Positions 4,966 to 53,896 of a stretch of 64,000 bases of DNA are shown here, one piece after another; the first letter of the stretch is position 1; each line of letters opens with the position of its first letter. This stretch comes from Heliocidaris erythrogramma. Its lineage: Eukaryota > Echinodermata > Echinoidea > Camarodonta > Echinometridae. Under the pieces are notes generated by a model, which did no database searches, was not told the DNA's origin, and saw only the letters and a list, made by a program, of their open reading frames with translations. Location: contig CM046858.1 in NCBI GenBank assembly GCA_025617745.1, forward strand, positions 43,349,750 through 43,413,749. The letters are read 5' to 3'. A program made the translations under genes and the position numbers.

Positions 4966-5114
4966 TTACACTTTGCTTGTTACGCATTTTTTATTCACTC
5001 TTTAATGTAAAGCAAATTCTTCTACGTAAAATGTTGATAAAGATTCATGGTACCAAAAGATATTAAAGTTTTGCCAAACACATGTTTGTTTTTTGTTTAT
5101 GAGAGAGGATCAAC

Positions 5115-5135
5115 TCCAGCTATTTTACAGCTGGA
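5115..5135 (+). repeat. Spacer hairpin (representative copy)
   Basis: TCCAGCT, a 7-base loop ATTTTAC, and AGCTGGA form a perfect 7-bp stem. It recurs at the same place in most spacers. Variants keep pairing: CCAGTT makes a G-T wobble, and TTTCAC changes only the loop. It is missing in the 275-bp units and in the unit before copy 45, so it is not needed for array persistence. Function unknown. Confidence 0.7.
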
Positions 5136-5205
5136 CTGGAAAATGTTTGGGAGAACCAGAAGGTTTTTGAAAGAAGAAAGTTGAATTAATGATAAATAGA
5201 ATTAC

Positions 5206-5213
5206 AAATTAAA
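5206..5213 (+). promoter_or_regulatory. TATA-like element upstream of tRNA (representative)
   Basis: AAATTAAA sits at -32 to -25 relative to the first tRNA base, the usual position for TFIIIB/TBP contact on Pol III genes. The same block is kept in essentially all 137 units, including the 275-bp morph, whose deletion ends just upstream. Promoter role is inferred from position. Confidence 0.55.
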
Positions 5214-5237
5214 GGCACATCAAACGCCGTCATGTAA

Positions 5238-5310
5238 GCCCGGTTAGCTCAGTCGGTAGAGCATGGGACTCTTAATCCCAGGGTCGTGGGTTCGAGCCCC
5301 ACATTGGGCG
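5238..5310 (+). tRNA. tRNA-Lys-CTT: tRNA-Lys(CTT) array copy 1
   Basis: Delivers lysine to AAG codons. The 73-base cloverleaf is complete: 7-bp acceptor stem with two G-T wobbles, 4-bp D stem, 5-bp anticodon stem TGGGA/TCCCA, loop CTCTTAA with anticodon CTT at 5271-5273, 5-base variable loop, 5-bp T stem and TTCGAGC loop. A box TAGCTCAGTCGG is at 5245-5256 and B box GGTTCGAGCCC at 5289-5299. Compared with the vertebrate gene as I recall it, pairs 7-66 and 29-41 have both changed in a compensatory way. No intron, no encoded CCA. First tRNA of the array. Confidence 0.97.
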
Positions 5311-5315
5311 AACCA

Positions 5316-5319
5316 TTTT
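5316..5319 (+). terminator. Pol III terminator TTTT (representative)
   Basis: A run of four T begins six bases after the tRNA end. It recurs after almost every copy in the context CCATTTTACA. Four T is a minimal Pol III terminator. Confidence 0.7.
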
Positions 5320-5338
5320 ACACTTTGCTTGTTACGCA

Positions 5339-5344
5339 TTTTTT
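5339..5344 (+). terminator. Backup Pol III terminator T6 (representative)
   Basis: A run of six T at +29 to +34 after the tRNA, in the context CGCATTTTTTATTC, is repeated in nearly every unit. It would catch transcripts reading through the TTTT at +6. Confidence 0.6.
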
Positions 5345-5627
5345 ATTCACTCTTTAATGTAAAGCAAATTCTGCTACGTAAAATGTTGATAAAGATTCAT
5401 GGTACCAAAAGATATTAAAGTTTTGCAAAACACATGTTTGTTTTTTGGTTTTTGTTTTTGTTTTTGTTGAAATATTGTAACAGCGTTTATGAGAGAGGAT
5501 CAACTCCAGCTATTTTACAGCTGGACTGGAAAATGTTTGGGAGAACCAGAAGGTTTTTGAAAGAAGAAAGTTGAATTAATGATAAATAGAATTACAAATT
5601 AAAGGCACATCAAACGCCGTCATGTAA

Positions 5628-5700
5628 GCCCGGTTAGCTCAGTCGGTAGAGCATGGGACTCTTAATCCCAGGGTCGTGGGTTCGAGCCCCACATTGGGCG
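5628..5700 (+). tRNA. tRNA-Lys-CTT: tRNA-Lys(CTT) array copy 2
   Basis: Consensus body; ends a 390-bp unit; 5' flank TGTAA. Confidence 0.96.
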
Positions 5701-6017
5701 AACCATTTTACACTTTGCTTGTTACGCATTTTTTATTCACTCTTTAATGTAAAGCAAATTCTGCTACGTAAAATGTTGATAAAGATTCATGGTACCAAAA
5801 GATATTAAAGTTTTGCAAAACACATGTTTGTTTTTTGTTTTTTGTTTTTGTTTTTGTTGAAATATTGTAACAGCGTTTATGAGAGAGGATCAACTCCAGC
5901 TATTTTACAGCTGGACTGGTAAATGTTTGGGAGAACCAGAAGGTTTTTGAAAGAAGAAAGTTGAATTAATGATAAATAGAATTACAAATTAAAGGCACAT
6001 CAAACGCCGTCATGTAA

Positions 6018-6090
6018 GCCCGGTTAGCTCAGTCGGTAGAGCATGGGACTCTTAATCCCAGGGTCGTGGGTTCGAGCCCCACATTGGGCG
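6018..6090 (+). tRNA. tRNA-Lys-CTT: tRNA-Lys(CTT) array copy 3
   Basis: Consensus body; ends a 390-bp unit; 5' flank TGTAA. Confidence 0.96.
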
Positions 6091-6381
6091 AACCATTTTA
6101 CACTTTGCTTGTTACGCATTTTTTATTCACTCTTTAATGTAAAGCAAATTCTGCTACGTAAAATGTTGATAAAGATTCATGGTACCAAAAGATATTAAAG
6201 TTTTGCAAAACACATGTTTGTTGAAATTTTGTAACAGCTTTTATGAGAGAGGATCAACTCCAGCTATTTTACAGCTGGACTGGAAAATGTTTGGGAGAAC
6301 CAGAAGGTTTTTGAAAGAAGAAAGTTGAATTAATGATAAATAGAATTACAAATTAAAGGCACATCAAACGCCGTCATGTAA

Positions 6382-6454
6382 GCCCGGTTAGCTCAGTCGG
6401 TAGAGCATGGGACTCTTAATCCCAGGGTCGTGGGTTCGAGCCCCACATTGGGCG
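6382..6454 (+). tRNA. tRNA-Lys-CTT: tRNA-Lys(CTT) array copy 4
   Basis: Consensus body; ends a 364-bp unit; 5' flank TGTAA. Confidence 0.96.
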
Positions 6455-6745
6455 AACCATTTTACACTTTGCTTGTTACGCATTTTTTATTCACTCTTTA
6501 ATGTAAAGCAAATTCTGCTACGTAAAATGTTGATAAAGATTCATGGTACCAAAAGATATTAAAGTTTTGCAAAACACATGTTTGTTGAAATATTGTAACA
6601 GCTTTTTTGAGAGAGGATCAACTCCAGCTATTTTACAGCTGGACTGGAAAATGTTTGGGAGAACCAGAAGGTTTTTGAAAGAAGAAAGTTGAATTAATGA
6701 TAAATAGAATTACAAATTAAAGGCACATGAAACGCCGTCATGTAA

Positions 6746-6818
6746 GCCCGGTTAGCTCAGTCGGTAGAGCATGGGACTCTTAATCCCAGGGTCGTGGGTT
6801 CGAGCCCCACATTGGGCG
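6746..6818 (+). tRNA. tRNA-Lys-CTT: tRNA-Lys(CTT) array copy 5
   Basis: Consensus body; ends a 364-bp unit; 3' flank ATCC rather than AACC. Confidence 0.96.
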
Positions 6819-7119
6819 ATCCATTTTACACTTTGTTTGTTACGCATTTTTTATTCACTCTTTAATGTAAAGCAAATTCTGCTACGTAAAATGTTGATAA
6901 AGATTCATGGTACCGAAAGATATTAAAGTTTTGTTTTTTGTTTTTTGTTTTTATTTTGTTGAAATATTGTAACAGCGTTTATGAGAGAGGATCAACTCCA
7001 GCTATTTTACAGCTGGACTGGAAAATGTTTGGGAGAACCAGAAGGTTTTTGAAAGAAGAAAGTTGAATTAATGATAAATAGAATTACAAATTAAAGTCGC
7101 ATGAAACGCCGTCATGTCA

Positions 7120-7192
7120 GCCCGGTTAGCTCAGTCGGTAGAGCATGGGACTCTTAATCCCAGGGTCGTGGGTTCGAGCCCCACATTGGGCG
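7120..7192 (+). tRNA. tRNA-Lys-CTT: tRNA-Lys(CTT) array copy 6
   Basis: Consensus body; ends a 374-bp unit; 5' flank TGTCA. Confidence 0.96.
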
Positions 7193-7494
7193 AACCATTT
7201 TACACTTTGCTTGTTACGCATTTTTTATTCATTCTTTAATGTAAAGCAAATTCTTCTACGTAAAATGTTGATAAAGATTCATGGTACCAAAAGATATTAA
7301 AGTTTTGTTTTTTGTTGTTTGTTTTTGTTTTGTTGAAATATTGTAACAGCGTTAATGAGAGAGGATCAACTCCAGCTATTTCACAGCTGGACTGGAAAAT
7401 GTTTGGGAGAACCAAAAGGTTTTTTGAAAGAAGAAACCTAAATTAATGATAAATAAAATTACAAATTATAGGCACATCAAACGCCGTCATGTCA

Positions 7495-7567
7495 GCCCGG
7501 TTAGCTCAGTCGGTAGAGCATGGGACTCTTAATCCCAGGGTCGTGGGTTCGAGCCCCACATTGGGCG
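7495..7567 (+). tRNA. tRNA-Lys-CTT: tRNA-Lys(CTT) array copy 7
   Basis: Consensus body; ends a 375-bp unit; 5' flank TGTCA. Start of the segment repeated from copy 14. Confidence 0.96.
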
Positions 7568-7884
7568 AACCATTTTACACTTTGCTTGTTACGCATTTTT
7601 TATTCACTCTTTAATGTAAAGCAAATTCTGCTACGTAAAATGTTGATAAAGATTCATGGTACCAAAAGATATTAAAGTTTTGCAAAACACATGTTTGTTT
7701 TTTGTTTTTTGTGTTTGTTTTTGTTGAAATATTGTAACAGCGTTTATGAGAGAGGATCAACTCCAGCTATTTTACAGCTGGACTGGTAAATGTTTGGGAG
7801 AACCAGAAGGTTTTTGAAAGAAGAAAGTTGAATTAATGATAAATAGAATTACAAATTAAAGGCACATCAAACGCCGTCATGTAA

Positions 7885-7957
7885 GCCCGGTTAGCTCAGT
7901 CGGTAGAGCATGGGACTCTTAATCCCAGGGTCGTGGGTTCGAGCCCCACATTGGGCG
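7885..7957 (+). tRNA. tRNA-Lys-CTT: tRNA-Lys(CTT) array copy 8
   Basis: Consensus body; ends a 390-bp unit; 3' flank ATCC. Last gene before the nested transposon. Confidence 0.96.
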
Positions 7958-8210
7958 ATCCATTTTACACTTTGTTTGTTACGCATTTTTTATTCACTCT
8001 TTAATGTAAAGCAAATTCTTCTACGTAAAATGTTGATAAAGATTCATGGTACCAAAAGATATTAAAGTTTTGTTTTTTGTTTTTTGTTTTTGTTTTGTAG
8101 AAATATTGTAACAGCGTTAATGAGAGAGGATCAACTCCAGCTATTTCACAGCTGGACTGGAAAATGTTTGGGAGAACCAGAAAGTTTTTGAACCAAGAAA
8201 GTTGAATTAA

Positions 8211-8846
8211 AGGACAATTAACCCCACATGATATTCTAGATGCGGTATTGTCTGCTACGTCTTTCCATGGAGGCTGCCATTTTGTGCATGACACGGATCA
8301 TTAGGTACCATATGCATTGATAATAGCCTACCTTTACAACAGATACGTCGCTTTGTTCTGATTTTATTACGATTGTTATTGGTCATGGGCCTAGATAATT
8401 GACGACCCATGAGTTCTAATAGCCATCCTGTAATGCAGATTCCTCGCTTTGTTTTGGTATTGTTACGATTGTCTCCGTCCTTGACGTCAATTCTCCGTCT
8501 CCACGTACAGAAAGTATATTTTTATGAACAAATTAAGACCTTTTAAAAAATATATAAAACTAAACTTACATTTCAGAATATGTGACTATATCTAATATAT
8601 ATTTGTCCTCTAAAAATCAATTACAAGTTAACGATGAAGGAAATATTACTTGGGATGAAAAATATTTTCGTGTACACATAAAGTAATGGCAGCCCCCTTA
8701 TTATTGCTAGCAGACAATAACTTGGCTGGAAAATAGTGATTTATATCTATATCCTGTGTTTTTACATGAAATTGCATGTATCAAATAAGAGGCATATACT
8801 ACACCATTCAAAATAAGCTAGTTCATACGCTGAGGTTAATTTCCCT
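8211..8846. mobile_element. Nested TTAA-flanked MITE in tRNA spacer, copy 1
   Basis: A 636-bp insertion with ends AGGACAATTAACC and, read inward from the right, AGGGAAATTAACC (11 of 13 match). It is bordered by TTAA at 8207-8210 and 8847-8850. All other units show the empty site GTTGAATTAATGATAA with a single TTAA, so the target duplication is read directly. It shares internal blocks with the 3934-4824 element. No transposase frame. A 97-codon minus-strand frame across its left end is incidental. Confidence 0.92.
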
Positions 8847-8898
8847 TTAATGATAAATAGAATTACAAATTAAAGTCGCATGAAACGCCGTCATGTCA

Positions 8899-8971
8899 GC
8901 CCGGTTAGCTCAGTCGGTAGAGCATGGGACTCTTAATCCCAGGGTCGTGGGTTCGAGCCCCACATTGGGCG
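8899..8971 (+). tRNA. tRNA-Lys-CTT: tRNA-Lys(CTT) array copy 9
   Basis: Consensus body; ends a 1014-bp unit enlarged by the nested transposon. The 5' flank next to the gene is normal (TGTCA). Confidence 0.96.
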
Positions 8972-9272
8972 AACCATTTTACACTTTGCTTGTTACGCAT
9001 TTTTTATTCATTCTTTAATGTAAAGCAAATTCTTCTACGTAAAATGTTGATAAAGATTCATGGTACCAAAAGATATTAAAGTTTTGTTTTTTGTTGTTTG
9101 TTTTTGTTTTGTTGAAATATTGTAACAGCGTTTTTGAGAGAGGATCAACTCCAGCTATTTTACAGCTGGACTGGTAAATGTTTGGGAGAACCAGAAGGTT
9201 TTTGAAAGAAGAAAGTTGAATTAATGATAAATAGAATTACAAATTAAAGGCACATGAAACGCCGTCATGTAA

Positions 9273-9345
9273 GCCCGGTTAGCTCAGTCGGTAGAGCATG
9301 GGACTCTTAATCCCAGGGTCGTGGGTTCGAGCCCCACATTGGGCG
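9273..9345 (+). tRNA. tRNA-Lys-CTT: tRNA-Lys(CTT) array copy 10
   Basis: Consensus body; ends a 374-bp unit; 5' flank TGTAA. Confidence 0.96.
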
Positions 9346-9636
9346 AACCATTTTACACTTTGCTTGTTACGCATTTTTTATTCACTCTTTAATGTAAAGC
9401 AAATTCTGCTACGTAAAATGTTGATAAAGATTCATGGTACCAAAAGATATTAAAGTTTTGCAAAACACATGTTTGTTGAAATATTGTAACAGCTTTTTTG
9501 AGAGAGGATCAACTCCAGCTATTTTACAGCTGGACTGGTAAATGTTTGGGAGAACCAGAAGGTTTCTGAAAGAAGAAAGTTGAATTAATGATAAATAGAA
9601 TTACAAATTAAAGGCACATGAAACGCCGTCATGTAA

Positions 9637-9709
9637 GCCCGGTTAGCTCAGTCGGTAGAGCATGGGACTCTTAATCCCAGGGTCGTGGGTTCGAGCCCCA
9701 CATTGGGCG
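9637..9709 (+). tRNA. tRNA-Lys-CTT: tRNA-Lys(CTT) array copy 11
   Basis: Consensus body; ends a 364-bp unit; 5' flank TGTAA. Confidence 0.96.
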
Positions 9710-9988
9710 AACCATTTTACACTTTGCTTGTTACGCATTTTTTATTCACTCTTTAATGTAAAGCAAATTCTGCTACGTAAAATGTTGATAAAGATTCATG
9801 GTACCAAAAGATATTAAAGTTTTGCAAAACACATGTTTGTTTTTTGTTTATGAGAGAGGATCAACTCCAGCTATTTTACAGCTGGACTGGAAAATGTTTG
9901 GGAGAACCAGAAGGTTTTTGAAAGAAGAAAGTTGAATTAATGATAAATAGAATTACAAATTAAAGGCACATGAAACGCCGTCATGTAA

Positions 9989-10061
9989 GCCCGGTTAGCT
10001 CAGTCGGTAGAGCATGGGACTCTTAATCCCAGGGTCGTGGGTTCGAGCCCCACATTGGGCG
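9989..10061 (+). tRNA. tRNA-Lys-CTT: tRNA-Lys(CTT) array copy 12
   Basis: Consensus body; ends a 352-bp unit; 3' flank ATCC. Confidence 0.96.
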
Positions 10062-10362
10062 ATCCATTTTACACTTTGTTTGTTACGCATTTTTTATTCA
10101 CTCTTTAATGTAAAGCAAATTCTTCTACGTAAAATGTTGATAAAGATTCATGGTACCAAAAGATATTAAAGTTTTGTTTTTTGTTTTTTGTTTTTATTTT
10201 GTTGAAATATTGTAACAGCGTTTATGAGAGAGGATCAACTCCAGCTATTTTACAGCTGGACTGGAAAATGTTTGGGAGAACCAGAAGGTTTTTGAAAGAA
10301 GAAAGTTGAATTAATGATAAATAGAATTACAAATTAAAGTCGCATGAAACGCCGTCATGTCA

Positions 10363-10435
10363 GCCCGGTTAGCTCAGTCGGTAGAGCATGGGACTCTTAA
10401 TCCCAGGGTCGTGGGTTCGAGCCCCACATTGGGCG
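10363..10435 (+). tRNA. tRNA-Lys-CTT: tRNA-Lys(CTT) array copy 13
   Basis: Consensus body; ends a 374-bp unit; 5' flank TGTCA. Confidence 0.96.
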
Positions 10436-10736
10436 AACCATTTTACACTTTGCTTGTTACGCATTTTTTATTCACTCTTTAATGTAAAGCAAATTCTGCT
10501 ACGTAAAATGTTGATAAAGATTCATGGTACCAAAAGATATTAAAGTTTTGTTTTTTGTTGTTTGTTTTTGTTTTGTTGAAATATTGTAACAGCGTTTATG
10601 AGAGAGGATCAACTCCAGCTATTTTACAGCTGGACTGGAAAATGTTTGGGAGAACCAGAAGGTTTTTGAAAGAAGAAAGTTGAATTAATGATAAATAGAA
10701 TTACAAATTATAGTCACATCAAACGCCGTCATGTAA

Positions 10737-10809
10737 GCCCGGTTAGCTCAGTCGGTAGAGCATGGGACTCTTAATCCCAGGGTCGTGGGTTCGAGCCCCA
10801 CATTGGGCG
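10737..10809 (+). tRNA. tRNA-Lys-CTT: tRNA-Lys(CTT) array copy 14
   Basis: Consensus body; ends a 374-bp unit; 5' flank TGTAA. Confidence 0.96.
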
Positions 10810-11126
10810 AACCATTTTACACTTTGCTTGTTACGCATTTTTTATTCACTCTTTAATGTAAAGCAAATTCTGCTACGTAAAATGTTGATAAAGATTCATG
10901 GTACCAAAAGATATTAAAGTTTTGCAAAACACATGTTTGTTTTTTGTTTTTTGTTTTTGTTTTTGTTGAAATATTGTAACAGCGTTTTTGAGAGAGGATC
11001 AACTCCAGCTATTTTACAGCTGGACTGGTAAATGTTTGGGAGAACCAGAAGGTTTTTGAAAGAAGAAAGTTGAATTAATGATAAATAGAATTACAAATTA
11101 AAGGCACATCAAACGCCGTCATGTAA

Positions 11127-11199
11127 GCCCGGTTAGCTCAGTCGGTAGAGCATGGGACTCTTAATCCCAGGGTCGTGGGTTCGAGCCCCACATTGGGCG
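11127..11199 (+). tRNA. tRNA-Lys-CTT: tRNA-Lys(CTT) array copy 15
   Basis: Consensus body; ends a 390-bp unit; 3' flank ATCC, as at copy 8. Confidence 0.96.
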
Positions 11200-11452
11200 A
11201 TCCATTTTACACTTTGCTTGTTACGCATTTTTTATTCACTCTTTAATGTAAAGCAAATTCTTCTACGTAAAATGTTGATAAAGATTCATGGTACCAAAAG
11301 ATATTAAAGTTTTGTTTTTTGTTTTTTGTTTTTGTTTTGTAGAAATATTGTAACAGCGTTAATGAGAGAGGATCAACTCCAGCTATTTCACAGCTGGACT
11401 GGAAAATGTTTGGGAGAACCAGAAAGTTTTTGAAAGAAGAAAGTTGAATTAA

Positions 11453-12088
11453 AGGACAATTAACCCCACATGATATTCTAGATGCGGTATTGTCTGCTAC
11501 GTCTTTCCATGGAGGCTGCCATTTTGTGCATGACACGGATCATTAGGTACCATATGCATTGATAATAGCCTACCTTTACAACAGATACGTCGCTTTGTTC
11601 TGATTTTATTACGATTGTTATTGGTCATGGGCCTAGATAATTGACGACCCATGAGTTCTAATAGCCATCCTGTAATGCAGATTCCTCGCTTTGTTTTGGT
11701 ATTGTTACGATTGTCTCCGTCCTTGACGTCAATTCTCCGTCTCCACGTACAGAAAGTATATTTTTATGAACAAATTAAGACCTTTTAAAAAATATATAAA
11801 ACTAAACTTACATTTCAGAATATGTGACTATATCTAATATATATTTGTCCTCTAAAAATCAATTACAAGTTAACGATGAAGGAAATATTACTTGGGATGA
11901 AAAATATTTTCGTGTACACATAAAGTAATGGCAGCCCCCTTATTATTGCTAGCAGACAATAACTTGGCTGGAAAATAGTGATTTATATCTATATCCTGTG
12001 TTTTTACATGAAATTGCATGTATCAAATAAGAGGCATATACTACACCATTCAAAATAAGCTAGTTCATACGCTGAGGTTAATTTCCCT
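11453..12088. mobile_element. Nested TTAA-flanked MITE in tRNA spacer, copy 2
   Basis: Copy of the 8211-8846 element, TTAA at 11449-11452 and 12089-12092, apparently identical along its length by eye. A difference just outside (GAAAGAAGAAAG here, GAACCAAGAAAG before copy 1) separates the two units. It was amplified with its host unit rather than inserted again. Confidence 0.92.
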
Positions 12089-12140
12089 TTAATGATAAAT
12101 AGAATTACAAATTAAAGTCGCATGAAACGCCGTCATGTCA

Positions 12141-12213
12141 GCCCGGTTAGCTCAGTAGGTAGAGCATGGGACTCTTAATCCCAGGGTCGTGGGTTCGAGC
12201 CCCACATTGGGCG
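12141..12213 (+). tRNA. tRNA-Lys-CTT: tRNA-Lys(CTT) array copy 16, C17A variant
   Basis: D loop reads AGTAGG instead of AGTCGG, a change at a normally variable position, so probably neutral. Ends a 1014-bp unit. Its counterpart, copy 9, lacks the change, so it arose after the duplication. Confidence 0.93.
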
Positions 12214-12514
12214 AACCATTTTACACTTTGCTTGTTACGCATTTTTTATTCATTCTTTAATGTAAAGCAAATTCTTCTACGTAAAATGTTGATAAAGATT
12301 CATGGTACCAAAAGATATTAAAGTTTTGTTTTTTGTTGTTTGTTTTTGTTTTGTTGAAATATTGTAACAGCGTTTTTGAGAGAGGATCAACTCCAGCTAT
12401 TTTACAGCTGGACTGGTAAATGTTTGGGAGAACCAGAAGGTTTTTGAAAGAAGAAAGTTGAATTAATGATAAATAGAATTACAAATTAAAGGCACATGAA
12501 ACGCCGTCATGTAA

Positions 12515-12587
12515 GCCCGGTTAGCTCAGTCGGTAGAGCATGGGACTCTTAATCCCAGGGTCGTGGGTTCGAGCCCCACATTGGGCG
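12515..12587 (+). tRNA. tRNA-Lys-CTT: tRNA-Lys(CTT) array copy 17
   Basis: Consensus body; ends a 374-bp unit; 5' flank TGTAA. Confidence 0.96.
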
Positions 12588-12878
12588 AACCATTTTACAC
12601 TTTGCTTGTTACGCATTTTTTATTCACTCTTTAATGTAAAGCAAATTCTGCTACGTAAAATGTTGATAAAGATTCATGGTACCAAAAGATATTAAAGTTT
12701 TGCAAAACACATGTTTGTTGAAATATTGTAACAGCTTTTTTGAGAGAGGATCAACTCCAGCTATTTTACAGCTGGACTGGTAAATGTTTGGGAGAACCAG
12801 AAGGTTTCTGAAAGAAGAAAGTTGAATTAATGATAAATAGAATTACAAATTAAAGGCACATGAAACGCCGTCATGTAA

Positions 12879-12951
12879 GCCCGGTTAGCTCAGTCGGTAG
12901 AGCATGGGACTCTTAATCCCAGGGTCGTGGGTTCGAGCCCCACATTGGGCG
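12879..12951 (+). tRNA. tRNA-Lys-CTT: tRNA-Lys(CTT) array copy 18
   Basis: Consensus body; ends a 364-bp unit; 5' flank TGTAA. Confidence 0.96.
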
Positions 12952-13252
12952 AACCATTTTACACTTTGCTTGTTACGCATTTTTTATTCACTCTTTAATG
13001 TAAAGCAAATTCTGCTACGTAAAATGTTGATAAAGATTCATGGTACCAAAAGATATTAAAGTTTTGTTTTTTGTTGTTTGTTTTTGTTTTGTTGAAATAT
13101 TGTAACAGCGTTAATGAGAGAGGATCAACTCCAGCTATTTCACAGCTGGACTGGAAAATGTTTGGGAGAACCAAAAGGTTTTTGAAAGAAGAAACCTAAA
13201 TTAATGATAAATAGAATTACAAATTAAAGTCACATGAAACGCCGTCATGTAA

Positions 13253-13325
13253 GCCCGGTTAGCTCAGTCGGTAGAGCATGGGACTCTTAATCCCAGGGTC
13301 GTGGGTTCGAGCCTCACATTGGGCG
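13253..13325 (+). tRNA. tRNA-Lys-CTT: tRNA-Lys(CTT) array copy 19, T-stem variant
   Basis: C62 is T (GCCTCAC), turning a G-C pair of the T stem into a G-U wobble; the fold survives, but the end of the B box is altered. Ends a 374-bp unit. Confidence 0.92.
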
Positions 13326-13604
13326 AACCATTTTACACTTTGCTTGTTACGCATTTTTTATTCACTCTTTAATGTAAAGCAAATTCTGCTACGTAAGATG
13401 TTGATAAAGATTCATGGTACCAAAAGATATTAAAGTTTTGCCCAACACATGTTTGTTTTTTGTTTATGAGAGAGGAACAACTCCAGCTATTTTACAGCTG
13501 GACTGGTAAATGTTTGGGAGAACCAGAAGGTTTTTGAAAGAAGAAAGTTGAATTAATGATAAATAGAATTACAAATTAAAGGCACATGAAACGCCGTCAT
13601 GTCA

Positions 13605-45141: not shown

Positions 45142-45343
45142 AACCATTTTACATTTTGCTTGTTACGCATTTTTTATTCACTCTTTAATGTAAAGCAAAT
45201 TCTTCTACGTAAGATGTTGATAAAGATTCATGGTACCAAAAGATATTAAAGTTTTGCCAAACACATGTTTGTTTTTTGTTTATGAGAGAGGATCAACTCC
45301 AGCTATTTTACAAATTAAAGTCACATGAAACGCCGTCATGTAA

Positions 45344-45416
45344 GCCCGGTTAGCTCAGTCGGTAGAGCATGGGACTCTTAATCCCAGGGTCGTGGGTTCG
45401 AGCCCCACATTGGGCG
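45344..45416 (+). tRNA. tRNA-Lys-CTT: tRNA-Lys(CTT) array copy 112
   Basis: Consensus body; ends a 275-bp unit; 5' flank TGTAA. Confidence 0.96.
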
Positions 45417-45697
45417 AACCATTTTACACTTTGCTTGTTACGCATTTTTTATTCACTCTTTAATGTAAAGCAAATTCTTCTACGTAAGATGTTGATAAAG
45501 ATTCATGGTACCAAAAGATATTGAAGATTGTGAAACACATGTTTGTTTTTTGTTTATGAGAGAGGATCAACTCCAGCTATTTTACAGCTGGACTGGAAAA
45601 TGTTTGGGGGAACCAGAAGGTTTTTGAAAGAAGAAACTTGAATTAATGATATAAAATAGAATTACAAATTAAAGTCACATGAAACGCCGTCATGTAA

Positions 45698-45770
45698 GCC
45701 CGGTTAGCTCAGTCGGTAGAGCATGGGACTCTTAATCCCAGGGTCGTGGGTTCGAGCCCCACATTGGGCG
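45698..45770 (+). tRNA. tRNA-Lys-CTT: tRNA-Lys(CTT) array copy 113
   Basis: Consensus body; ends a 354-bp unit with flank TGTAA, where most 354-bp units have TGTGA. Confidence 0.96.
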
Positions 45771-46049
45771 AACCATTTTACACTTTGCTTGTTACGCATT
45801 TTTTATTCACTCTTTAATGTAAAGCAATTTCTGGTACGTAAAATGTTGATAAAGATTCATGGTACCAAAAGATATTAAAGTTTTGCCAAACACATGTTTG
45901 TTTTTTGTTTATGAGAGAGGATCAACTCCAGTTATTTTACAGCTGGACTGGAAAATGTTTGGGAGAACCAGAAGGTTTCTGAAAGAAGAAAGTTGAATTA
46001 ATGATAAATAGAATTACAAATTAAAGGCACATGAAACGCCGTCATGTAA

Positions 46050-46122
46050 GCCCGGTTAGCTCAGTCGGTAGAGCATGGGACTCTTAATCCCAGGGTCGTG
46101 GGTTCGAGCCCCACATTGGGCG
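46050..46122 (+). tRNA. tRNA-Lys-CTT: tRNA-Lys(CTT) array copy 114
   Basis: Consensus body; ends a 352-bp unit with private changes near 45827-45836 (GCAATTTCTGG). Confidence 0.96.
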
Positions 46123-46324
46123 AACCATTTTACATTTTGCTTGTTACGCATTTTTTATTCACTCTTTAATGTAAAGCAAATTCTTCTACGTAAGATGTTG
46201 ATAAAGATTCATGGTACCAAAAGATATTAAAGTTTTGCCAAACACATGTTTGTTTTTTGTTTATGAGCGAGGATCAACTCCAGCTATTTTACAAATTAAA
46301 GTCACATGAAACGCCGTCATGTCA

Positions 46325-46397
46325 GCCCGGTTAGCTCAGTCGGTAGAGCATGGGACTCTTAATCCCAGGGTCGTGGGTTCGAGCCCCACATTGGGCG
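46325..46397 (+). tRNA. tRNA-Lys-CTT: tRNA-Lys(CTT) array copy 115
   Basis: Consensus body; ends a 275-bp unit; 5' flank TGTCA. Confidence 0.96.
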
Positions 46398-46678
46398 AAC
46401 CATTTTACACTTTGCTTGTTACGCATTTTTTATTCACTCTTTAATGTAAAGCAAATTCTTCTACGTAAGATGTTGATAAAGATTCATGGTACCAAAAGAT
46501 ATTGAAGATTGTGAAACACATGTTTGTTTTTTGTTTATGAGAGAGGATCAACTCCAGCTATTTTACAGCTGGACTGGAAAATGTTTGGGGGAACCAGAAG
46601 GTTTTTGAAAGAAGAAACTTGAATTAATGATATAAAATAGAATTACAAATTAAAGTCACATGAAACGCCGTCATGTAA

Positions 46679-46751
46679 GCCCGGTTAGCTCAGTCGGTAG
46701 AGCATGGGACTCTTAATCCCAGGGTCGTGGGTTCGAGCCCCACATTGGGCG
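46679..46751 (+). tRNA. tRNA-Lys-CTT: tRNA-Lys(CTT) array copy 116
   Basis: Consensus body; ends a 354-bp unit with flank TGTAA. Confidence 0.96.
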
Positions 46752-47030
46752 AACCATTTTACACTTTGCTTGTTACGCATTTTTTATTCACTCTTTAATG
46801 TAAAGCAAATTCTGCTACGTAAGATGTTGATAAAGATTCATGGTACCAAAAGATATTAAAGTTTTGCCAAACACATGTTTGTTTTTTGTTTATGAGAGAG
46901 GATCAACTCCAGTTATTTTACAGCTGGACTGGAAAATGTTTGGGAGAACCAGAAGGTTTTTGAAAGAAGAAAGTTGAATTAATGATAAATAGAATTACAA
47001 ATTAAAGGCACATCAAACGCCGTCATGTAA

Positions 47031-47103
47031 GCCCGGTTAGCTCAGTCGGTAGAGCATGGGACTCTTAATCCCAGGGTCGTGGGTTCGAGCCCCACATTGG
47101 GCG
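47031..47103 (+). tRNA. tRNA-Lys-CTT: tRNA-Lys(CTT) array copy 117
   Basis: Consensus body; ends a 352-bp unit. Confidence 0.96.
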
Positions 47104-47305
47104 AACCATTTTACATTTTGCTTGTTACGCATTTTTTATTCACTCTTTAATGTAAAGCAAATTCTTCTACGTAAGATGTTGATAAAGATTCATGGTACCA
47201 AAAGATATTAAAGTTTTGCCAAACACATGTTTGTTTTTTGTTTATGAGCGAGGATCAACTCCAGCTATTTTACAAATTAAAGTCACATGAAACGCCGTCA
47301 TGTAA

Positions 47306-47378
47306 GCCCGGTTAGCTCAGTCGGTAGAGCATGGGACTCTTAATCCCAGGGTCGTGGGTTCGAGCCCCACATTGGGCG
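47306..47378 (+). tRNA. tRNA-Lys-CTT: tRNA-Lys(CTT) array copy 118
   Basis: Consensus body; ends a 275-bp unit. Confidence 0.96.
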
Positions 47379-47659
47379 AACCATTTTACACTTTGCTTGT
47401 TACGCATTTTTTATTCACTCTTTAATGTAAAGCAAATTCTTCTACGTAAGATGTTGATAAAGATTCATGGTACCAAAAGATATTGAAGATTGTGAAACAC
47501 ATGTTTGTTTTTTGTTTATGAGAGAGGATCAACTCCAGCTATTTTACAGCTGGACTGGAAAATGTTTGGGGGAACCAAAAGGTTTTTGAAAGAAGAAACT
47601 TGAATTAATGATATAAAATAGAATTACAAATTAAAGTCACATGAAACGCCGTCATGTGA

Positions 47660-47732
47660 GCCCGGTTAGCTCAGTCGGTAGAGCATGGGACTCTTAATCC
47701 CAGGGTCGTGGGTTCGAGCCCCACATTGGGCG
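47660..47732 (+). tRNA. tRNA-Lys-CTT: tRNA-Lys(CTT) array copy 119
   Basis: Consensus body; ends a 354-bp unit; 5' flank TGTGA. Confidence 0.96.
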
Positions 47733-48011
47733 AACCATTTTACACTTTGCTTGTTACGCATTTTTTATTCACTCTTTAATGTAAAGCAAATTCTTCTACG
47801 TAAGATGTTGATAAAGATTCATGGTACCAAAAGATATTAAAGTTTTGCCAAACACATGTTTGTTTTTTGTTTATGAGAGAGGATCAACTCCAGTTATTTT
47901 ACAGCTGGACTGGTAAATGTTTGGGAGAACCAGAAGGTTTTTGAAAGAAGAAAGTTGAATTAATGATAAATAGAATTACAAATTAAAGGCACATCAAACG
48001 CCGTCATGTAA

Positions 48012-48083
48012 GCCCGGTTAGCTCAGTCGGTAGAGCAGGGACTCTTAATCCCAGGGTCGTGGGTTCGAGCCCCACATTGGGCG
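48012..48083 (+). tRNA. tRNA-Lys-CTT: tRNA-Lys(CTT) array copy 120, 1-base deletion
   Basis: The gene is 72 bases: GAGCAGGGACTC replaces GAGCATGGGACTC, removing one base at the top of the anticodon stem, so the 27-43 pair is lost. A and B boxes are intact, so it may be transcribed, but folding is impaired. Possible pseudogene. Confidence 0.8.
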
Positions 48084-48285
48084 AACCATTTTACATTTTG
48101 CTTGTTACGCATTTTTTATTCACTCTTTAATGTAAAGCAAATTCTTCTACGTAAGATGTTGATAAAGATTCATGGTACCAAAAGATATTAAAGTTTTGCC
48201 AAACACATGTTTGTTTTTTGTTTATGAGAGAGGATTAACTCCAGCTATTTTACAAATTAAAGTCACATGAAACGCCGTCATGTAA

Positions 48286-48358
48286 GCCCGGTTAGCTCAG
48301 TCGGTAGAGCATGGGACTCTTAATCCCAGGGTCGTGGGTTCGAGCCCCACATTGGGCG
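48286..48358 (+). tRNA. tRNA-Lys-CTT: tRNA-Lys(CTT) array copy 121
   Basis: Consensus body; normal 275-morph spacer of 202 bp, with GATTAACTCC in place of GATCAACTCC. Confidence 0.96.
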
Positions 48359-48649
48359 AACCATTTTACACTTTGCTTGTTACGCATTTTTTATTCACTC
48401 TTTAATGTAAAGCAAATTCTGCTACGTAAAATGTTGATAAAGATTCATGGTACCAAAAGATATTAAAGTTTTGCAAAACACATGTTTGTTGAAATATTGT
48501 AACAGCTTTTTTGAGAGAGGATCAACTCCAGCTATTTTACAGCTGGACTGGTAAATGTTTGGGAGAACCAGAAGGTTTCTGAAAGAAGAAAGTTGAATTA
48601 ATGATAAATAGAATTACAAATTAAAGGCACATGAAACGCCGTCATGTAA

Positions 48650-48722
48650 GCCCGGTTAGCTCAGTCGGTAGAGCATGGGACTCTTAATCCCAGGGTCGTG
48701 GGTTCGAGCCCCACATTGGGCG
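48650..48722 (+). tRNA. tRNA-Lys-CTT: tRNA-Lys(CTT) array copy 122
   Basis: Consensus body; ends a 364-bp unit, a middle-block morph reappearing here. Confidence 0.96.
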
Positions 48723-49003
48723 AACCATTTTACACTTTGCTTGTTACGCATTTTTTATTCACTCTTTAATGTAAAGCAAATTCTGCTACGTAAGATGTTG
48801 ATAAAGATTCATGGTACCAAAAGATATTGAAGAATGTGAAACACATGTTTGTTTTTTGTTTATGAGAGAGGATCAACTCCAGCTATTTTACAGCTGGACT
48901 GGAAAATGTTTGGGGGAACCAAAAGGTTTTTGAAAGAAGAAACTTGAATTAATGATATAAAATAGAATTACAAATTAAAGGCACATGAAACGCCGTCATG
49001 TGA

Positions 49004-49076
49004 GCCCGGTTAGCTCAGTCGGTAGAGCATGGGACTCTTAATCCCAGGGTCGTGGGTTCGAGCCCCACATTGGGCG
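49004..49076 (+). tRNA. tRNA-Lys-CTT: tRNA-Lys(CTT) array copy 123
   Basis: Consensus body; ends a 354-bp unit with GAAGAATGTG; 5' flank TGTGA. Confidence 0.96.
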
Positions 49077-49355
49077 AACCATTTTACACTTTGCTTGTTA
49101 CGCATTTTTTATTCACTCTTTAATGTAAAGCAAATTCTGCTACGTAAAATGTTGATAAAGATTCATGGTACCAAAAGATATTAAAGTTTTGCCAAACACA
49201 TGTTTGTTTTTTGTTTATGAGAGAGGATCAACTCCAGTTATTTTACAGCTGGACTGGAAAATGTTTGGGAGAACCAGAAGGTTTTTGAAAGAAGAAAGTT
49301 GAATTAATGATAAATAGAATTACAAATTAAAGGCACATCAAACGCCGTCATGTAA

Positions 49356-49428
49356 GCCCGGTTAGCTCAGTCGGTAGAGCATGGGACTCTTAATCCCAGG
49401 GTCGTGGGTTCGAGCCCCACATTGGGCG
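49356..49428 (+). tRNA. tRNA-Lys-CTT: tRNA-Lys(CTT) array copy 124
   Basis: Consensus body; ends a 352-bp unit. Confidence 0.96.
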
Positions 49429-49707
49429 AACCATTTTACACTTTGCTTGTTACGCATTTTTTATTCACTCTTTAATGTAAAGCAAATTCTGCTACGTAAA
49501 ATGTTGATAAAGATTCATGGTACCAAAAGATATTAAAGTTTTGCCAAACACATGTTTGTTTTTTGTTTATGAGAGAGGATCAACTCCAGCTATTTTACAG
49601 CTGGACTGGAAAATGTTTGGGAGAACCAGAAGGTTTTTGAAAGAAGAAAGTTGAATTAATGATAAATAGAATTACAAATTAAAGGCACATCAAACGCCGT
49701 CATGTAA

Positions 49708-49780
49708 GCCCGGTTAGCTCAGTCGGTAGAGCATGGGACTCTTAATCCCAGGGTCGTGGGTTCGAGCCCCACATTGGGCG
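49708..49780 (+). tRNA. tRNA-Lys-CTT: tRNA-Lys(CTT) array copy 125
   Basis: Consensus body; ends a 352-bp unit. Confidence 0.96.
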
Positions 49781-49982
49781 AACCATTTTACACTTTGCTT
49801 GTTACGCATTTTTTATTCACTCTTTAATGTAAAGCAAATTCTTCTACGTAAGATGTTGATAAAGATTCATGGTACCAAAAGATATTAAAGTTTTGCCAAA
49901 CACATGTTTGTTTTTTGTTTATGAGAGAGGATTAACTCCAGCTATTTTACAAATTAAAGTCACATGAAACGCCGTCATGTAA

Positions 49983-50055
49983 GCCCGGTTAGCTCAGTCG
50001 GTAGAGCATGGGACTCTTAATCCCAGGGTCGTGGGTTCGAGCCCCACATTGGGCG
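49983..50055 (+). tRNA. tRNA-Lys-CTT: tRNA-Lys(CTT) array copy 126
   Basis: Consensus body; ends a 275-bp unit sharing the GATTAACTCC change with copy 121. The next unit is again 364 bp, so this is a short duplication. Confidence 0.96.
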
Positions 50056-50346
50056 AACCATTTTACACTTTGCTTGTTACGCATTTTTTATTCACTCTTT
50101 AATGTAAAGCAAATTCTGCTACGTAAAATGTTGATAAAGATTCATGGTACCAAAAGATATTAAAGTTTTGCAAAACACATGTTTGTTGAAATATTGTAAC
50201 AGCTTTTTTGAGAGAGGATCAACTCCAGCTATTTTACAGCTGGACTGGTAAATGTTTGGGAGAACCAGAAGGTTTCTGAAAGAAGAAAGTTGAATTAATG
50301 ATAAATAGAATTACAAATTAAAGGCACATGAAACGCCGTCATGTAA

Positions 50347-50419
50347 GCCCGGTTAGCTCAGTCGGTAGAGCATGGGACTCTTAATCCCAGGGTCGTGGGT
50401 TCGAGCCCCACATTGGGCG
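50347..50419 (+). tRNA. tRNA-Lys-CTT: tRNA-Lys(CTT) array copy 127
   Basis: Consensus body; ends a 364-bp unit. Confidence 0.96.
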
Positions 50420-50720
50420 AACCATTTTACACTTTGCTTGTTACGCATTTTTTATTCACTCTTTAATGTAAAGCAAATTCTGCTACGTAAAATGTTGATA
50501 AAGATTCATGGTACCAAAAGATATTAAAGTTTTGTTTTTTGTTGTTTGTTTTTATTTTGTTGAAATATTGTAACAGCGTTTATGAGAGAGGATCAACTCC
50601 AGCTATTTTACAGCTGGACTGGTAAATGTTTGGGAGAACCAGAAGGTTTTTGAAAGAAGAAAGTTGAATTAATGATAAATAGAATTACAAATTAAAGGCA
50701 CATGAAACGCCGTCATGTAA

Positions 50721-50793
50721 GCCAGGTTAGCTCAGTCGGTAGAGCATGGGACTCTTAATCCCAGGGTCGTGGGTTCGAGCCCCACATTGGGCG
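50721..50793 (+). tRNA. tRNA-Lys-CTT: tRNA-Lys(CTT) array copy 128, acceptor-stem variant
   Basis: C4 is A (GCCAGG), giving an A-G mismatch with position 69 in the acceptor stem, next to two G-U wobbles. The stem is weakened and processing may suffer. Ends a 374-bp unit; 3' flank AGCC. Confidence 0.88.
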
Positions 50794-51072
50794 AGCCATT
50801 TTACACTTTGCTTGTTACGCATTTTTTATTCACTCTTTAATGTAAAGCAAATTCTTCTACGTAAGATGTTGATAAAGATTCATGGTACCAAAAGATATTA
50901 AAGTTTTGCCAAACACATGTTTGTTTTTTGTTTATGAGAGAGGATCAACTCCAGTTATTTTACAGCTGGACTGGAAAATGTTTGGGAGAACCAGAAGGTT
51001 TTTGAAAGAAGAAAGTTGAATTAATGATAAATAGAATTACAAATTAAAGTCACATCAAACGCCGTCATGTAA

Positions 51073-51145
51073 GCCCGGTTAGCTCAGTCGGTAGAGCATG
51101 GGACTCTTAATCCCAGGGTCGTGGGTTCGAGCCCCACATTGGGCG
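51073..51145 (+). tRNA. tRNA-Lys-CTT: tRNA-Lys(CTT) array copy 129
   Basis: Consensus body; ends a 352-bp unit. Confidence 0.96.
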
Positions 51146-51347
51146 AACCATTTTACATTTTGCTTGTTACGCATTTTTTATTCACTCTTTAATGTAAAGC
51201 AAATTCTTCTACGTAAGATGTTGATAAAGATTCATGGTACCAAAAGATATTAAAGTTTTGCCAAACACATGTTTGTTTTTTGTTTATGAGCGAGGATCAA
51301 CTCCAGCTATTTTACAAATTAAAGTCACATGAAACGCCGTCATGTCA

Positions 51348-51420
51348 GCCCGGTTAGCTCAGTCGGTAGAGCATGGGACTCTTAATCCCAGGGTCGTGGG
51401 TTCGAGCCCCACATTGGGCG
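51348..51420 (+). tRNA. tRNA-Lys-CTT: tRNA-Lys(CTT) array copy 130
   Basis: Consensus body; ends a 275-bp unit, the last of this morph. Confidence 0.96.
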
Positions 51421-51701
51421 AACCATTTTACACTTTGCTTGTTACGCATTTTTTATTCACTCTTTAATGTAAAGCAAATTCTTCTACGTAAGATGTTGAT
51501 AAAGATTCATGGTACCAAAAGATATTGAAGATTGTGAAACACATGTTTGTTTTTTGTTTATGAGAGAGGATCAACTCCAGCTATTTTACAGCTGGACTGG
51601 AAAATGTTTGGGGGAACCAGAAGGTTTTTGAAAGAAGAAACTTGAATTAATGATATAAAATAGAATTACAAATAAAAGTCACATGAAACGCCGTCATGTG
51701 A

Positions 51702-51774
51702 GCCCGGTTAGCTCAGTCGGTAGAGCATGGGACTCTTAATCCCAGGGTCGTGGGTTCGAGCCCCACATTGGGCG
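51702..51774 (+). tRNA. tRNA-Lys-CTT: tRNA-Lys(CTT) array copy 131
   Basis: Consensus body; ends a 354-bp unit; TATA-like block is AAATAAAA here. Confidence 0.96.
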
Positions 51775-52053
51775 AACCATTTTACACTTTGCTTGTTACG
51801 AATTTTTTATTCACTCTTTAATGTAAAGCAAATTCTTCTACGTAAGATGTTGATAAAGATTCATGGTACCAAAAGATATTAAAGTTTTGCCAAACACATG
51901 TTTGTTTTTTGTTTATGAGAGAGGATCAACTCCAGTTATTTTACAGCTGGACTGGAAAATGTTTGGGAGAACCAGAAGGTTTTTGAAAGAAGAAAGTTGA
52001 ATTAATGATAAATAGAATTACAAATTAAAGTCACATCAAACGCCGTCATGTCA

Positions 52054-52126
52054 GCCCGGTTAGCTCAGTCGGTAGAGCATGGGACTCTTAATCCCAGGGT
52101 CGTGGGTTCGAGCCCCACATTGGGCG
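52054..52126 (+). tRNA. tRNA-Lys-CTT: tRNA-Lys(CTT) array copy 132
   Basis: Consensus body; ends a 352-bp unit; 5' flank TGTCA. Confidence 0.96.
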
Positions 52127-52405
52127 AACCATTTTACATTTTGCTTGTTACGCATTTTTCATTCACTCTTTAATGTAAAGCAAATTCTTCTACGTAAGAT
52201 GTTGATAAAGATTCATGGTACCAAAAGATATTAAAGTTTGTCAAACACATGTTTGTTTTTTGTTTATGAGAGAGGATCAACTCCAGCTATTTTACAGCTG
52301 GACTGGAAAATGTTTGGGAGAACCAAAAGGTTTTTTGAAAGAAGAAAGTTGAATTAATGATAAATAGAATTACAAATTAAAGGCACATCATACACCGTCA
52401 TGTAA

Positions 52406-52478
52406 GCCCGGTTAGCTCAGTCGGTAGAGCATGGGACTCTTAATCCCAGGGTCGTGGGTTCGAGCCCCACATTGGGCG
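52406..52478 (+). tRNA. tRNA-Lys-CTT: tRNA-Lys(CTT) array copy 133
   Basis: Consensus body; spacer has the edge markers AAGTTTGTCAAACAC and CCAAAAGG, and upstream CATCATACACC. Confidence 0.95.
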
Positions 52479-52770
52479 AACCATTTTACACTTTGCTTGT
52501 TACGCATTTTTTTATTCACTCTTTAATGTAAAGCAAATTCTGCTACGTAAAATGTTGATAAAGATTCATGGTACCAAAAGATATTAAAGTTTTGCAAAAC
52601 ACATGTTTGTTGAAATATTGTAACAGCTTTTTTGAGAGAGGATCAACTCCAGCTATTTTACAGCTGGACTGGAAAATTTTTGGGAGAACAAAAAGGTTTT
52701 TGAAAGAAGAAAGTTGAATTAATGATAAATAGAATTACAAATTAAAGGCACATCAAACGCCGTCATGTAA

Positions 52771-52843
52771 GCCCGGTTAGCTCAGTCGGTAGAGCATGGG
52801 ACTCTTAATCCCAGGGTCGTGGGTTCGAGCCCCACATTGGGCG
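52771..52843 (+). tRNA. tRNA-Lys-CTT: tRNA-Lys(CTT) array copy 134
   Basis: Consensus body; ends a 365-bp unit with private changes (GGGAGAACAAAAAGG). Confidence 0.95.
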
Positions 52844-53122
52844 AACCATTTTACACTTTGCTTGTTACGCATTTTTTATTCACTCTTTAATGTAAAGCAA
52901 ATTCTGCTACGTAAAATGTTGATAAAGATTCATGGTACCAAAAGATATTAAAGTTTGTCAAACACATGTTTGTTTTTTGTTGATGAGAGAGGATCAACTC
53001 CAGCTATTTTACAGCTGGACTGGAAAATGTTTGGGAGAACCAAAAGGTTTTTTGAAAGAAGAAAGTTGAATTAATGATAAATAGAATTACAAATTAAAGG
53101 CACATCAAACGCCGTCATGTAA

Positions 53123-53195
53123 GCCCGGTTAGCTCAGTCGGTAGAGCATGGGACTCTTAATCCCAGGGTCGTGGGTTCGAGCCCCACATTGGGCG
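53123..53195 (+). tRNA. tRNA-Lys-CTT: tRNA-Lys(CTT) array copy 135
   Basis: Consensus body; 352-bp unit with edge markers. Confidence 0.95.
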
Positions 53196-53472
53196 AACCA
53201 TTTTACACTTTGCTTGTTACGCATTTTTTATTCACTCTTTAATGTAAAGCAAATTCTTCTACGTAAGATGTTGATAAAGATTCATGGTACCAAAAGATAT
53301 TAAAGTTTGTCAAACACGTTTGTTTTTTGTTTATGAGAGAGGATCAACTCCAGCTATTTTACAGCTGGACTGGAAAATGTTTGGGAGAACCAAAAGGTTT
53401 TTTGAAAGAAGAAAGTTGAATTAATGATAAATAGAATTACAAATTAAAGGCACATCAAACGCCGTCATGTAA

Positions 53473-53545
53473 GCCCGGTTAGCTCAGTCGGTAGAGCATG
53501 GGACTCTTAATCCCAGGGTCGTGGGTTCGAGCCCCACATTGGGCG
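53473..53545 (+). tRNA. tRNA-Lys-CTT: tRNA-Lys(CTT) array copy 136
   Basis: Consensus body; 350-bp unit with edge markers. Last intact copy. Confidence 0.95.
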
Positions 53546-53824
53546 AACCATTTTACACTTTGCTTGTTACGCATTTTTTATTCACTCTTTATTGTAAAGC
53601 AAATTCTCATACGTAAGATGTTGATAAAGATTCATGGTACCAAAATATATTAAAGTTTGTCAAACACATGTTTGTTTTTTGTTTATGAGAGAGGATCAAC
53701 TCCAGCTATTTTACAGCTGGACTGGAAAATGTTTGGGAGAACCAAAAGGTTTTTTGAAAGAAGAAAGTCGAAATAATGATAAATAGAATTACAAATTAAA
53801 GGCACATCAAACACCCTCATGTAA

Positions 53825-53896
53825 GCCCGGTTAGCTCAGTCGGTTGGCAAGGGACTCTTAATCCCAGGGTCGTGGGTTCGAACCCCACATTGGGCG
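53825..53896 (+). tRNA. Degenerate terminal tRNA-Lys(CTT), array copy 137
   Basis: A 72-base copy with TTGGCAA in place of TAGAGCAT, which breaks the D stem and the first anticodon-stem pair, and TTCGAAC in the T loop. The anticodon CTT, T stem, acceptor stem and B box remain. It is followed by AAACCTTTT, so a TTTT terminator is present, and array homology stops at the tRNA end. Probably a decayed edge copy and possibly a pseudogene. Confidence 0.65.

What the first reader, a model, noticed from the sequence alone, without database searches (positions are those of the whole stretch)
4966..53896. A complete 48.9-kb macrosatellite made of 137 tRNA-Lys(CTT) genes
Seen: 137 head-to-tail units, all on one strand, one isoacceptor only, 123 bodies apparently identical. 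Known: tRNA genes are often clustered, but mixed clusters and small arrays are usual; a single-isoacceptor array with both edges resolved is striking. Inference: it may mass-produce tRNA-Lys (for example in oogenesis), act as a chromatin boundary or nuclear organising site through TFIIIC, or simply be a satellite that recruited a tRNA gene.
Basis: partly seen in the sequence, partly recalled or inferred. Interest (0 to 1): 0.92.

Follow-up and report, generated by a model that had tools for sequence, protein, structure and literature searches.

The report
Single-type tRNA gene arrays, echinoderm genome
A 49-kb stretch of an animal genome, probably a sea cucumber, carries 136 near-identical copies of one lysine tRNA gene in a row, and at least six other tRNA types in that genome have similar arrays, which suggests that this animal stocks tRNA genes the way animals usually stock ribosomal RNA genes.

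Summary
Confirmed, and part of something larger. The window holds 136 complete tRNA-Lys(CTT) genes plus one 23-nt truncated copy, all on the + strand. 123 of 136 bodies are identical. It is unlikely to be an assembly duplication: 106 of 136 units are distinct, the longest exact repeat is 909 bp, and both flanks are unique. tRNA bodies vary about 13-fold less than spacers (pi 0.0020 v 0.0264), and identical bodies occur on C1 and C14 with unrelated flanks, so the genes look selected. The spacer probe occurs 116 times in the genome, all 116 in this window. New: of seven further tRNA probes, six gave hits (Lys-TTT, Asp-GTC, initiator Met, Gly-GCC, Trp-CCA, Glu-CTC), and each showed at least one one-strand array; the Sec probe found nothing. 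Spacers of the two sister arrays sampled are unrelated to this one. The mitochondrial code indicates an echinoderm, probably a sea cucumber. Most likely role: tRNA dosage, perhaps in oogenesis; no expression data. Nearest known kind: Entamoeba tRNA arrays. My ten paper searches found no such report for echinoderms.

The parts
4966..53905 (+). Whole tandem array, about 48.9 kb, from the partial first spacer to just past the terminator of the last gene
5238..53896 (+). 136 tRNA-Lys(CTT) genes, 123 with identical 73-nt bodies
52844..53195 (+). Example of one 352-bp unit: T4 terminator region of the previous gene, spacer, tRNA gene
37937..48254 (+). Region with a higher-order trimer of about 981 bp (roughly 352 + 275 + 354 bp)
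30577..30599 (+).
8211..8850 (.). 640-bp MITE-like insert at a TTAA, first copy
11453..12092 (.). Same insert, second copy, 100% identical, 3,242 bp on: block duplication
48012..48083 (+). tRNA copy with a 1-nt deletion (54.5 bits v 67.8 for the standard body)
53825..53896 (+). Diverged right-edge tRNA copy (49 bits)

Best explanation
A functional tRNA-Lys(CTT) multigene array, one of at least seven isoacceptor-specific array sets in this echinoderm genome. SHOWN: tandem structure, higher-order blocks, co-amplified insert, far less variation in bodies than in spacers, a T4 after every gene, a spacer probe found only here, one-strand arrays for six other isoacceptors. INFERRED origin: one founder gene was duplicated by an exchange that joined the T-run after the gene to sequence about 270 bp upstream, so every unit carries upstream region, gene and terminator; unequal exchange and conversion then expanded and homogenised it while selection kept the bodies usable. 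INFERRED function: gene dosage. Each copy has its own internal Pol III promoter, so output can rise with copy number, as for 5S rRNA genes; the likeliest demand is bulk supply in growing oocytes or early embryos, with the few dispersed genes as a second source.
For: 136 genes with cloverleaf scores of 49-67.8 bits. Diversity 0.0020 in bodies v 0.0264 in spacers; 4 of 73 v 47 of 257 columns vary (Fisher p = 0.006), 131 of 136 units used. None of 186 all-spacer windows of the same size is as invariant. T4 at +6 after 136 of 136 genes. Identical bodies on C1 and three times on C14 with unrelated flanks. One-strand arrays for Lys-TTT, Asp-GTC, initiator Met, Gly-GCC, Trp-CCA and Glu-CTC. The rarest amino acid tested, Trp, has the fewest hits (68 v 108-224), as dosage would predict; seven points only. 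[quoted passage not shown]
Against: No expression data. 13 of 136 bodies differ, and G15C, at a conserved D-loop/A-box base (recalled), spread to 7 copies, so defective copies are tolerated. The array terminator is a minimal T4, while four of five dispersed Lys-CTT genes have T5-T12 (the fifth, on C21, has no T4 within 60 nt). A tandem tRNA cluster in Arabidopsis is silent in most tissues (PMC12308677, passages). Array and sampled dispersed bodies are identical on C1 and C14, unlike the distinct isodecoders in zebrafish. The Fisher test ignores linkage between sites. In circular shifts of the column set 15 of 331 windows, those overlapping the body included, are as poor in variable sites.
Confidence: 0.52

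Rival explanations
1. Near-neutral satellite: the tRNA gene is carried in a tandem repeat that grows and shrinks by unequal exchange; most copies are silent and the size of the array has no function.
For: Higher-order blocks, many length variants and a co-amplified insert are usual for satellites. Imperfect copies persist.
Against: Bodies vary about 13-fold less than spacers; the T4 is kept in 136 of 136 copies; the spacer probe is found only here; six other isoacceptors have arrays, and the two sampled have unrelated spacers.
Confidence: 0.22
2. Chromatin boundary or nuclear organising site: dense TFIIIC binding at 136 tRNA genes insulates or clusters chromosome domains, and tRNA output is secondary.
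For: Precedent: the human 1q23.3 tRNA repeat binds CTCF and lies at a domain boundary (PMC4041453, passages). The array lies far from the contig ends (about 43.4 of 54.8 Mb).
Against: No test here. A boundary role alone does not explain one array per isoacceptor or identical anticodons and bodies.
Confidence: 0.13
3. Assembly artefact: copy number inflated by false duplication of a short cluster.
For: Tandem arrays are hard to assemble, and no reads could be inspected here.
Against: 106 of 136 units are distinct and the longest exact repeat is 909 bp; both flanks are unique; separate arrays occur elsewhere in the assembly.
Confidence: 0.04

Closest known systems
Entamoeba tRNA gene arrays (PMC2652664, passages)
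   Same: Tandem units of one to five tRNA types; several separate arrays; very high tRNA gene numbers
   Different: There 25 array types, over 10% of the genome, and in E. histolytica short tandem repeats between genes; here an animal with arrays that show one isoacceptor per probe and spacers of a few hundred bases
Zebrafish chromosome 4 tRNA clusters (PMC11417395, passages; PMC2888827, passages)
   Same: Large repetitive tRNA clusters beside isolated genes; parallel orientation
   Different: Zebrafish adjacent pairs are mostly heterogeneous (K-N, K-S, R-T most frequent); here one isoacceptor per array. Expression classes are known there, not here
Human 1q23.3 tRNA tandem repeat (PMC4041453, passages)
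   Same: Tandem repeat of tRNA genes
   Different: 7.3-kb GC-rich units with five tRNA genes of four amino acids and 9-43 copies; here units are mostly 274-390 bp with one gene, AT-rich
Arabidopsis Ser/Tyr (SYY) tRNA cluster (PMC12308677, passages)
   Same: Tandem tRNA genes in one cluster
   Different: Two amino acids per repeat; silent in most tissues and active in root cap cells
Sea cucumber tRNA gene sets (PMC8580430, passages and section 2.1; PMC11082199, passages)
   Same: High numbers: 1,032 tRNA genes in Apostichopus japonicus (Asp 146, Leu 116, Met 90) and 5,836 in Holothuria scabra
   Different: Arrays are not described in what I saw; the words tandem and cluster do not occur in the main text of PMC8580430

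Membership tests
Functional nuclear tRNA-Lys(CTT) gene | Cloverleaf with CTT anticodon | tested here: met
   136 of 136 by ARAGORN and RF00005, 49-67.8 bits
Functional nuclear tRNA-Lys(CTT) gene | Pol III terminator (T run of four or more) close behind the gene | tested here: met
   T4 at +6 after 136 of 136 genes
Functional nuclear tRNA-Lys(CTT) gene | Transcribed and charged | not testable with these tools
   no expression data held
Entamoeba-type tRNA arrays | Head-to-tail units coding for one to five tRNA types | tested here: met
   one type per unit in this array
Entamoeba-type tRNA arrays | Almost all tRNA genes of the genome in arrays | tested here: inconclusive
   seven isoacceptors with hits have arrays, Sec probe none, other isoacceptors not probed; dispersed copies and small clusters exist too
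Entamoeba-type tRNA arrays | Complex short tandem repeats between genes (E. histolytica, E. dispar) | tested here: not met
   only a short T-rich stretch repeats in some spacers
Macrosatellite | Units above about 1 kb (recalled definition) | tested here: not met
   132 of 135 spacings are 274-390 bp
Macrosatellite | Copy number differs between individuals | not testable with these tools
   one assembly
Inert satellite DNA | No part of the unit more constrained than the rest | tested here: not met
   body pi 0.0020 v spacer 0.0264; spacer windows at least 0.0153
Zebrafish-type maternal tRNA clusters | Arrayed genes supply eggs and early embryos, isolated genes the later pool | not testable with these tools
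   both gene classes exist but no expression data

The most novel reading that the evidence does not exclude
An animal genome in which many or most tRNA isoacceptors each have their own one-isoacceptor tandem array of tens to hundreds of copies on scattered chromosomes, an rDNA-like organisation known mainly from Entamoeba, with the arrays giving a maternal tRNA supply and the dispersed copies the somatic one.
Probability: 0.3. Interest if true: 0.78.

Novelty: new variant of a known kind. Interest (0 to 1): 0.62.

Why it matters
A 2010 survey of eukaryotic tRNA genes says that tRNA tandem repeats had been reported only in Entamoeba histolytica (PMC2888827, passage). One-isoacceptor arrays for at least seven isoacceptors in a deuterostome animal would make three questions testable: whether tRNA supply is set by gene copy number, whether animals keep separate maternal and somatic tRNA gene sets as suggested for zebrafish, and how selection and homogenisation act together on very short repeated genes. 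Spacers differ between the arrays sampled, so precursor reads could be assigned to an array even where mature tRNAs are identical.

Tried and rejected
Longer ORFs in the neighbouring loci were listed but not searched. A fuzzy regular expression timed out and was replaced by mismatch counts. The Sec probe gave 0 hits; it may simply not fit, so there is no working single-copy control. An RF00005 scan of the genome did not complete, because the tool scores only the best candidates. Ten paper searches found no account of tRNA arrays in echinoderms; they cover open-licence papers only. CpG decay as a sign of methylation: nine consensus CpGs are kept in at least 128 of 131 units, which neither supports nor excludes silencing. 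A 1,000-base piece of a long gap in the C5 Glu array holds no tRNA. Considered and set aside: assembly duplication (units too diverse), and a dispersed satellite that picked up a tRNA gene (spacer probe found only here).
Full report
OBSERVATION. The window is G000:C6:43349750-43413749 of a 1,064,227,859-base assembly in 26 contigs. It contains 136 tRNA-Lys(CTT) genes, all on the + strand, by ARAGORN, and 136 tRNA matches by Rfam RF00005. 123 of 136 bodies are identical, 11 have one substitution, one has a 1-nt deletion and the last has several changes. Gene-to-gene spacings cluster at 352, 364, 275, 374, 390 and 354 bp, and 106 of 136 units are distinct. The array runs from 4966 to about 53905.

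REAL ARRAY. The longest exact repeat in the array is 909 bp. About 37.9-48.3 kb has a higher-order trimer of about 981 bp: among units 89-120, units three apart differ by a median of 2 events and neighbours by 12. A 640-bp insert with near-matching inverted ends at a TTAA occurs twice, 100% identical, 3,242 bp apart, as expected if a block that carried it was duplicated. Both flanks are unique, and eight neighbouring 10-kb stretches (40 kb each side) hold no tRNA by ARAGORN. No reads were inspected.

CONSTRAINT. I aligned the 133 units shorter than 450 bp and left out the first (partial) and last (edge) units, so 131 of 136 units enter; three long units and the indel-rich columns 118-176 were dropped. 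Mean pairwise diversity is 0.0020 in the 73-nt body and 0.0264 in 257 spacer columns; 4 of 73 and 47 of 257 columns vary (Fisher p = 0.006); for variants seen at least twice it is 1 of 73 and 32 of 257 (p = 0.003). Sites are linked, so the p values are approximate. Of 331 circular windows of 73 columns, 15 have as few variable sites as the body and 3 as low a diversity, the body and its overlaps included; none of the 186 windows wholly in spacer reaches either value (fewest variable sites 8, lowest diversity 0.0153). A T4 at +6 follows 136 of 136 genes. The one body variant that spread, G15C in 7 copies, changes a conserved D-loop/A-box base (recalled), so weakened copies are tolerated.

REST OF THE GENOME. 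The exact body occurs 133 times, 123 of them in the window. The 5' half with up to 2 mismatches occurs 149 times, 134 in the window. Of the 15 elsewhere, eight are listed (C1, C21, three on C14, three on C16) and seven are not. The C1 copy and the three on C14 have identical bodies and unrelated flanks; the C21 copy has one mismatch and lies between tRNA-Glu(CTC) and tRNA-Val(CAC) genes. A spacer 35-mer with up to 3 mismatches occurs 116 times in the genome and 116 times in the window.

SISTER ARRAYS. Seven other tRNA probes with up to 3 mismatches were run. The tool lists 100 places per search, so most array ends are lower bounds. Lys-TTT: 151 hits; 99 of 100 listed lie at C12:18857091-18897568, + strand. 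Asp-GTC: 224; 97 of 100 listed at C3:18209957-18267590, - strand. Initiator Met: 203; of 100 listed 77 at C9:44051664-44072186 and 18 at C5:42081089-42104552, - strand, 5 elsewhere. Gly-GCC: 156; 95 of 100 listed at C10:23799483-23835335, - strand. Trp-CCA: 68, all listed; 65 at C6:27469395-27494512, + strand. Glu-CTC: 108; of 100 listed 65 at C5:3826051-3898215 (-), 23 at C1:65094382-65108734 (+), 12 elsewhere. Sec: none. So each of the seven isoacceptors with any hit, Lys-CTT included, has at least one one-strand array. A probe sees one isoacceptor only, so other genes could lie between; in the pieces read (C12 1.1 kb with 4 Lys-TTT genes, C3 1.2 kb with 3 Asp genes) there were none, nor in a 1-kb piece of a long gap of the C5 Glu array. 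The C9, C10, C1, C5 Met and C6 Trp arrays were not read. Between the C6, C12 and C3 pieces BLAST aligns only Lys-CTT with Lys-TTT, over the tRNA body and up to about 30 flanking bases. I read this as separate origins of the arrays, not spread of one satellite.

ORGANISM. A COX1 frame lies on C24, a 12,905-base contig. In the 220 codons read, three of four AAA codons fall at positions that I recall as Asn in animal COX1, ATA reads as Ile, AGA as Ser and TGA as Trp: the echinoderm code, table 9. Genome size and the 78.55-Mb C1 resemble Holothuria scabra (1.19 Gb, 23 pseudo-chromosomes, longest 79.75 Mb; PMC11082199, passages). Echinoderm is well supported; sea cucumber is an inference; the species is unknown.

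MECHANISM. The left edge (ATTATTACACTTTGC), the right edge (GGGCGAAACCTTTTCGTC) and the internal joint (GGGCGAACCATTTTACACTTTGC) suggest a first duplication that joined the T-run behind the gene to a point about 270 bp upstream, so each unit kept gene and terminator; this is inference. Expansion by unequal exchange follows from the block structure. For function I favour dosage. Copy numbers agree loosely: Trp has the fewest hits. Zebrafish is the closest functional parallel (PMC11417395, passages). Against it stand the lack of expression data, identical bodies in array and sampled dispersed genes on C1 and C14, the minimal T4 where four of five dispersed genes have T5-T12 (the C21 gene has none within 60 nt), and the mostly silent Arabidopsis cluster (PMC12308677, passages).

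KNOWN OR NEW. Tandem tRNA arrays are known in Entamoeba (PMC2652664, passages), repetitive clusters in zebrafish and a tRNA tandem repeat in human (PMC4041453, passages); I also recall tandem tRNA repeats in Xenopus, not checked. In ten searches of open-licence papers I saw no account of one-isoacceptor arrays for several isoacceptors in an animal, nor of tRNA arrays in an echinoderm. I file it as a new variant of a known kind.

Noticed in passing
G000:C6:27475413-27491305 (listing): 11 of the 65 copies in the Trp-CCA array read CTCCTGA in the anticodon loop, so their anticodon would be CCT (Arg, codon AGG) on a tRNA-Trp-like body; they also share a GGTCG change. An anticodon-shifted subfamily or pseudogenes.
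   Followed up: no
window 8211-8850 and 11453-12092; relatives at 4607-4676 and 4059-4099: A 640-bp MITE-like element with inverted ends (AAAGGRMAATTAACC-like) at a TTAA, inserted once and then co-duplicated; pieces of a related element lie in the left flank.
   Followed up: partly
window 13605, 14721, 15073, 15425, 17635, 31448, 34667: The G15C tRNA variant, the only body change shared by several copies; five of the seven lie within 4.1 kb.
   Followed up: no
L051 1377-1625 (C21 near 46.3656 Mb): Tight mixed cluster of tRNA-Glu(CTC), tRNA-Lys(CTT) and tRNA-Val(CAC) with gaps of 11-18 nt; the Val-like gene looks like a SINE head (judged by eye).
   Followed up: no
G000:C5:3826051-3898215: The Glu-CTC array alternates steps of about 457 and 1,460 bp; one 1-kb piece of a long step holds no tRNA.
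   Followed up: partly
window units, alignment column 322 (next to the 5' end of the gene): One position just before the gene carries all four bases (A 87, C 33, G 10, T 3 of 133) beside the nearly invariant body.
   Followed up: no
window 153-546: A 192-bp sequence tandemly duplicated in the left flank, 93% matches.
   Followed up: no
G000:C18:38311399-38311439: A Lys-TTT copy that matches the canonical probe exactly, whereas 99 of 100 listed copies (the C12 array) differ from it, most by GGGCC for GGGTC: array and dispersed isodecoders may differ for Lys-TTT.
   Followed up: no
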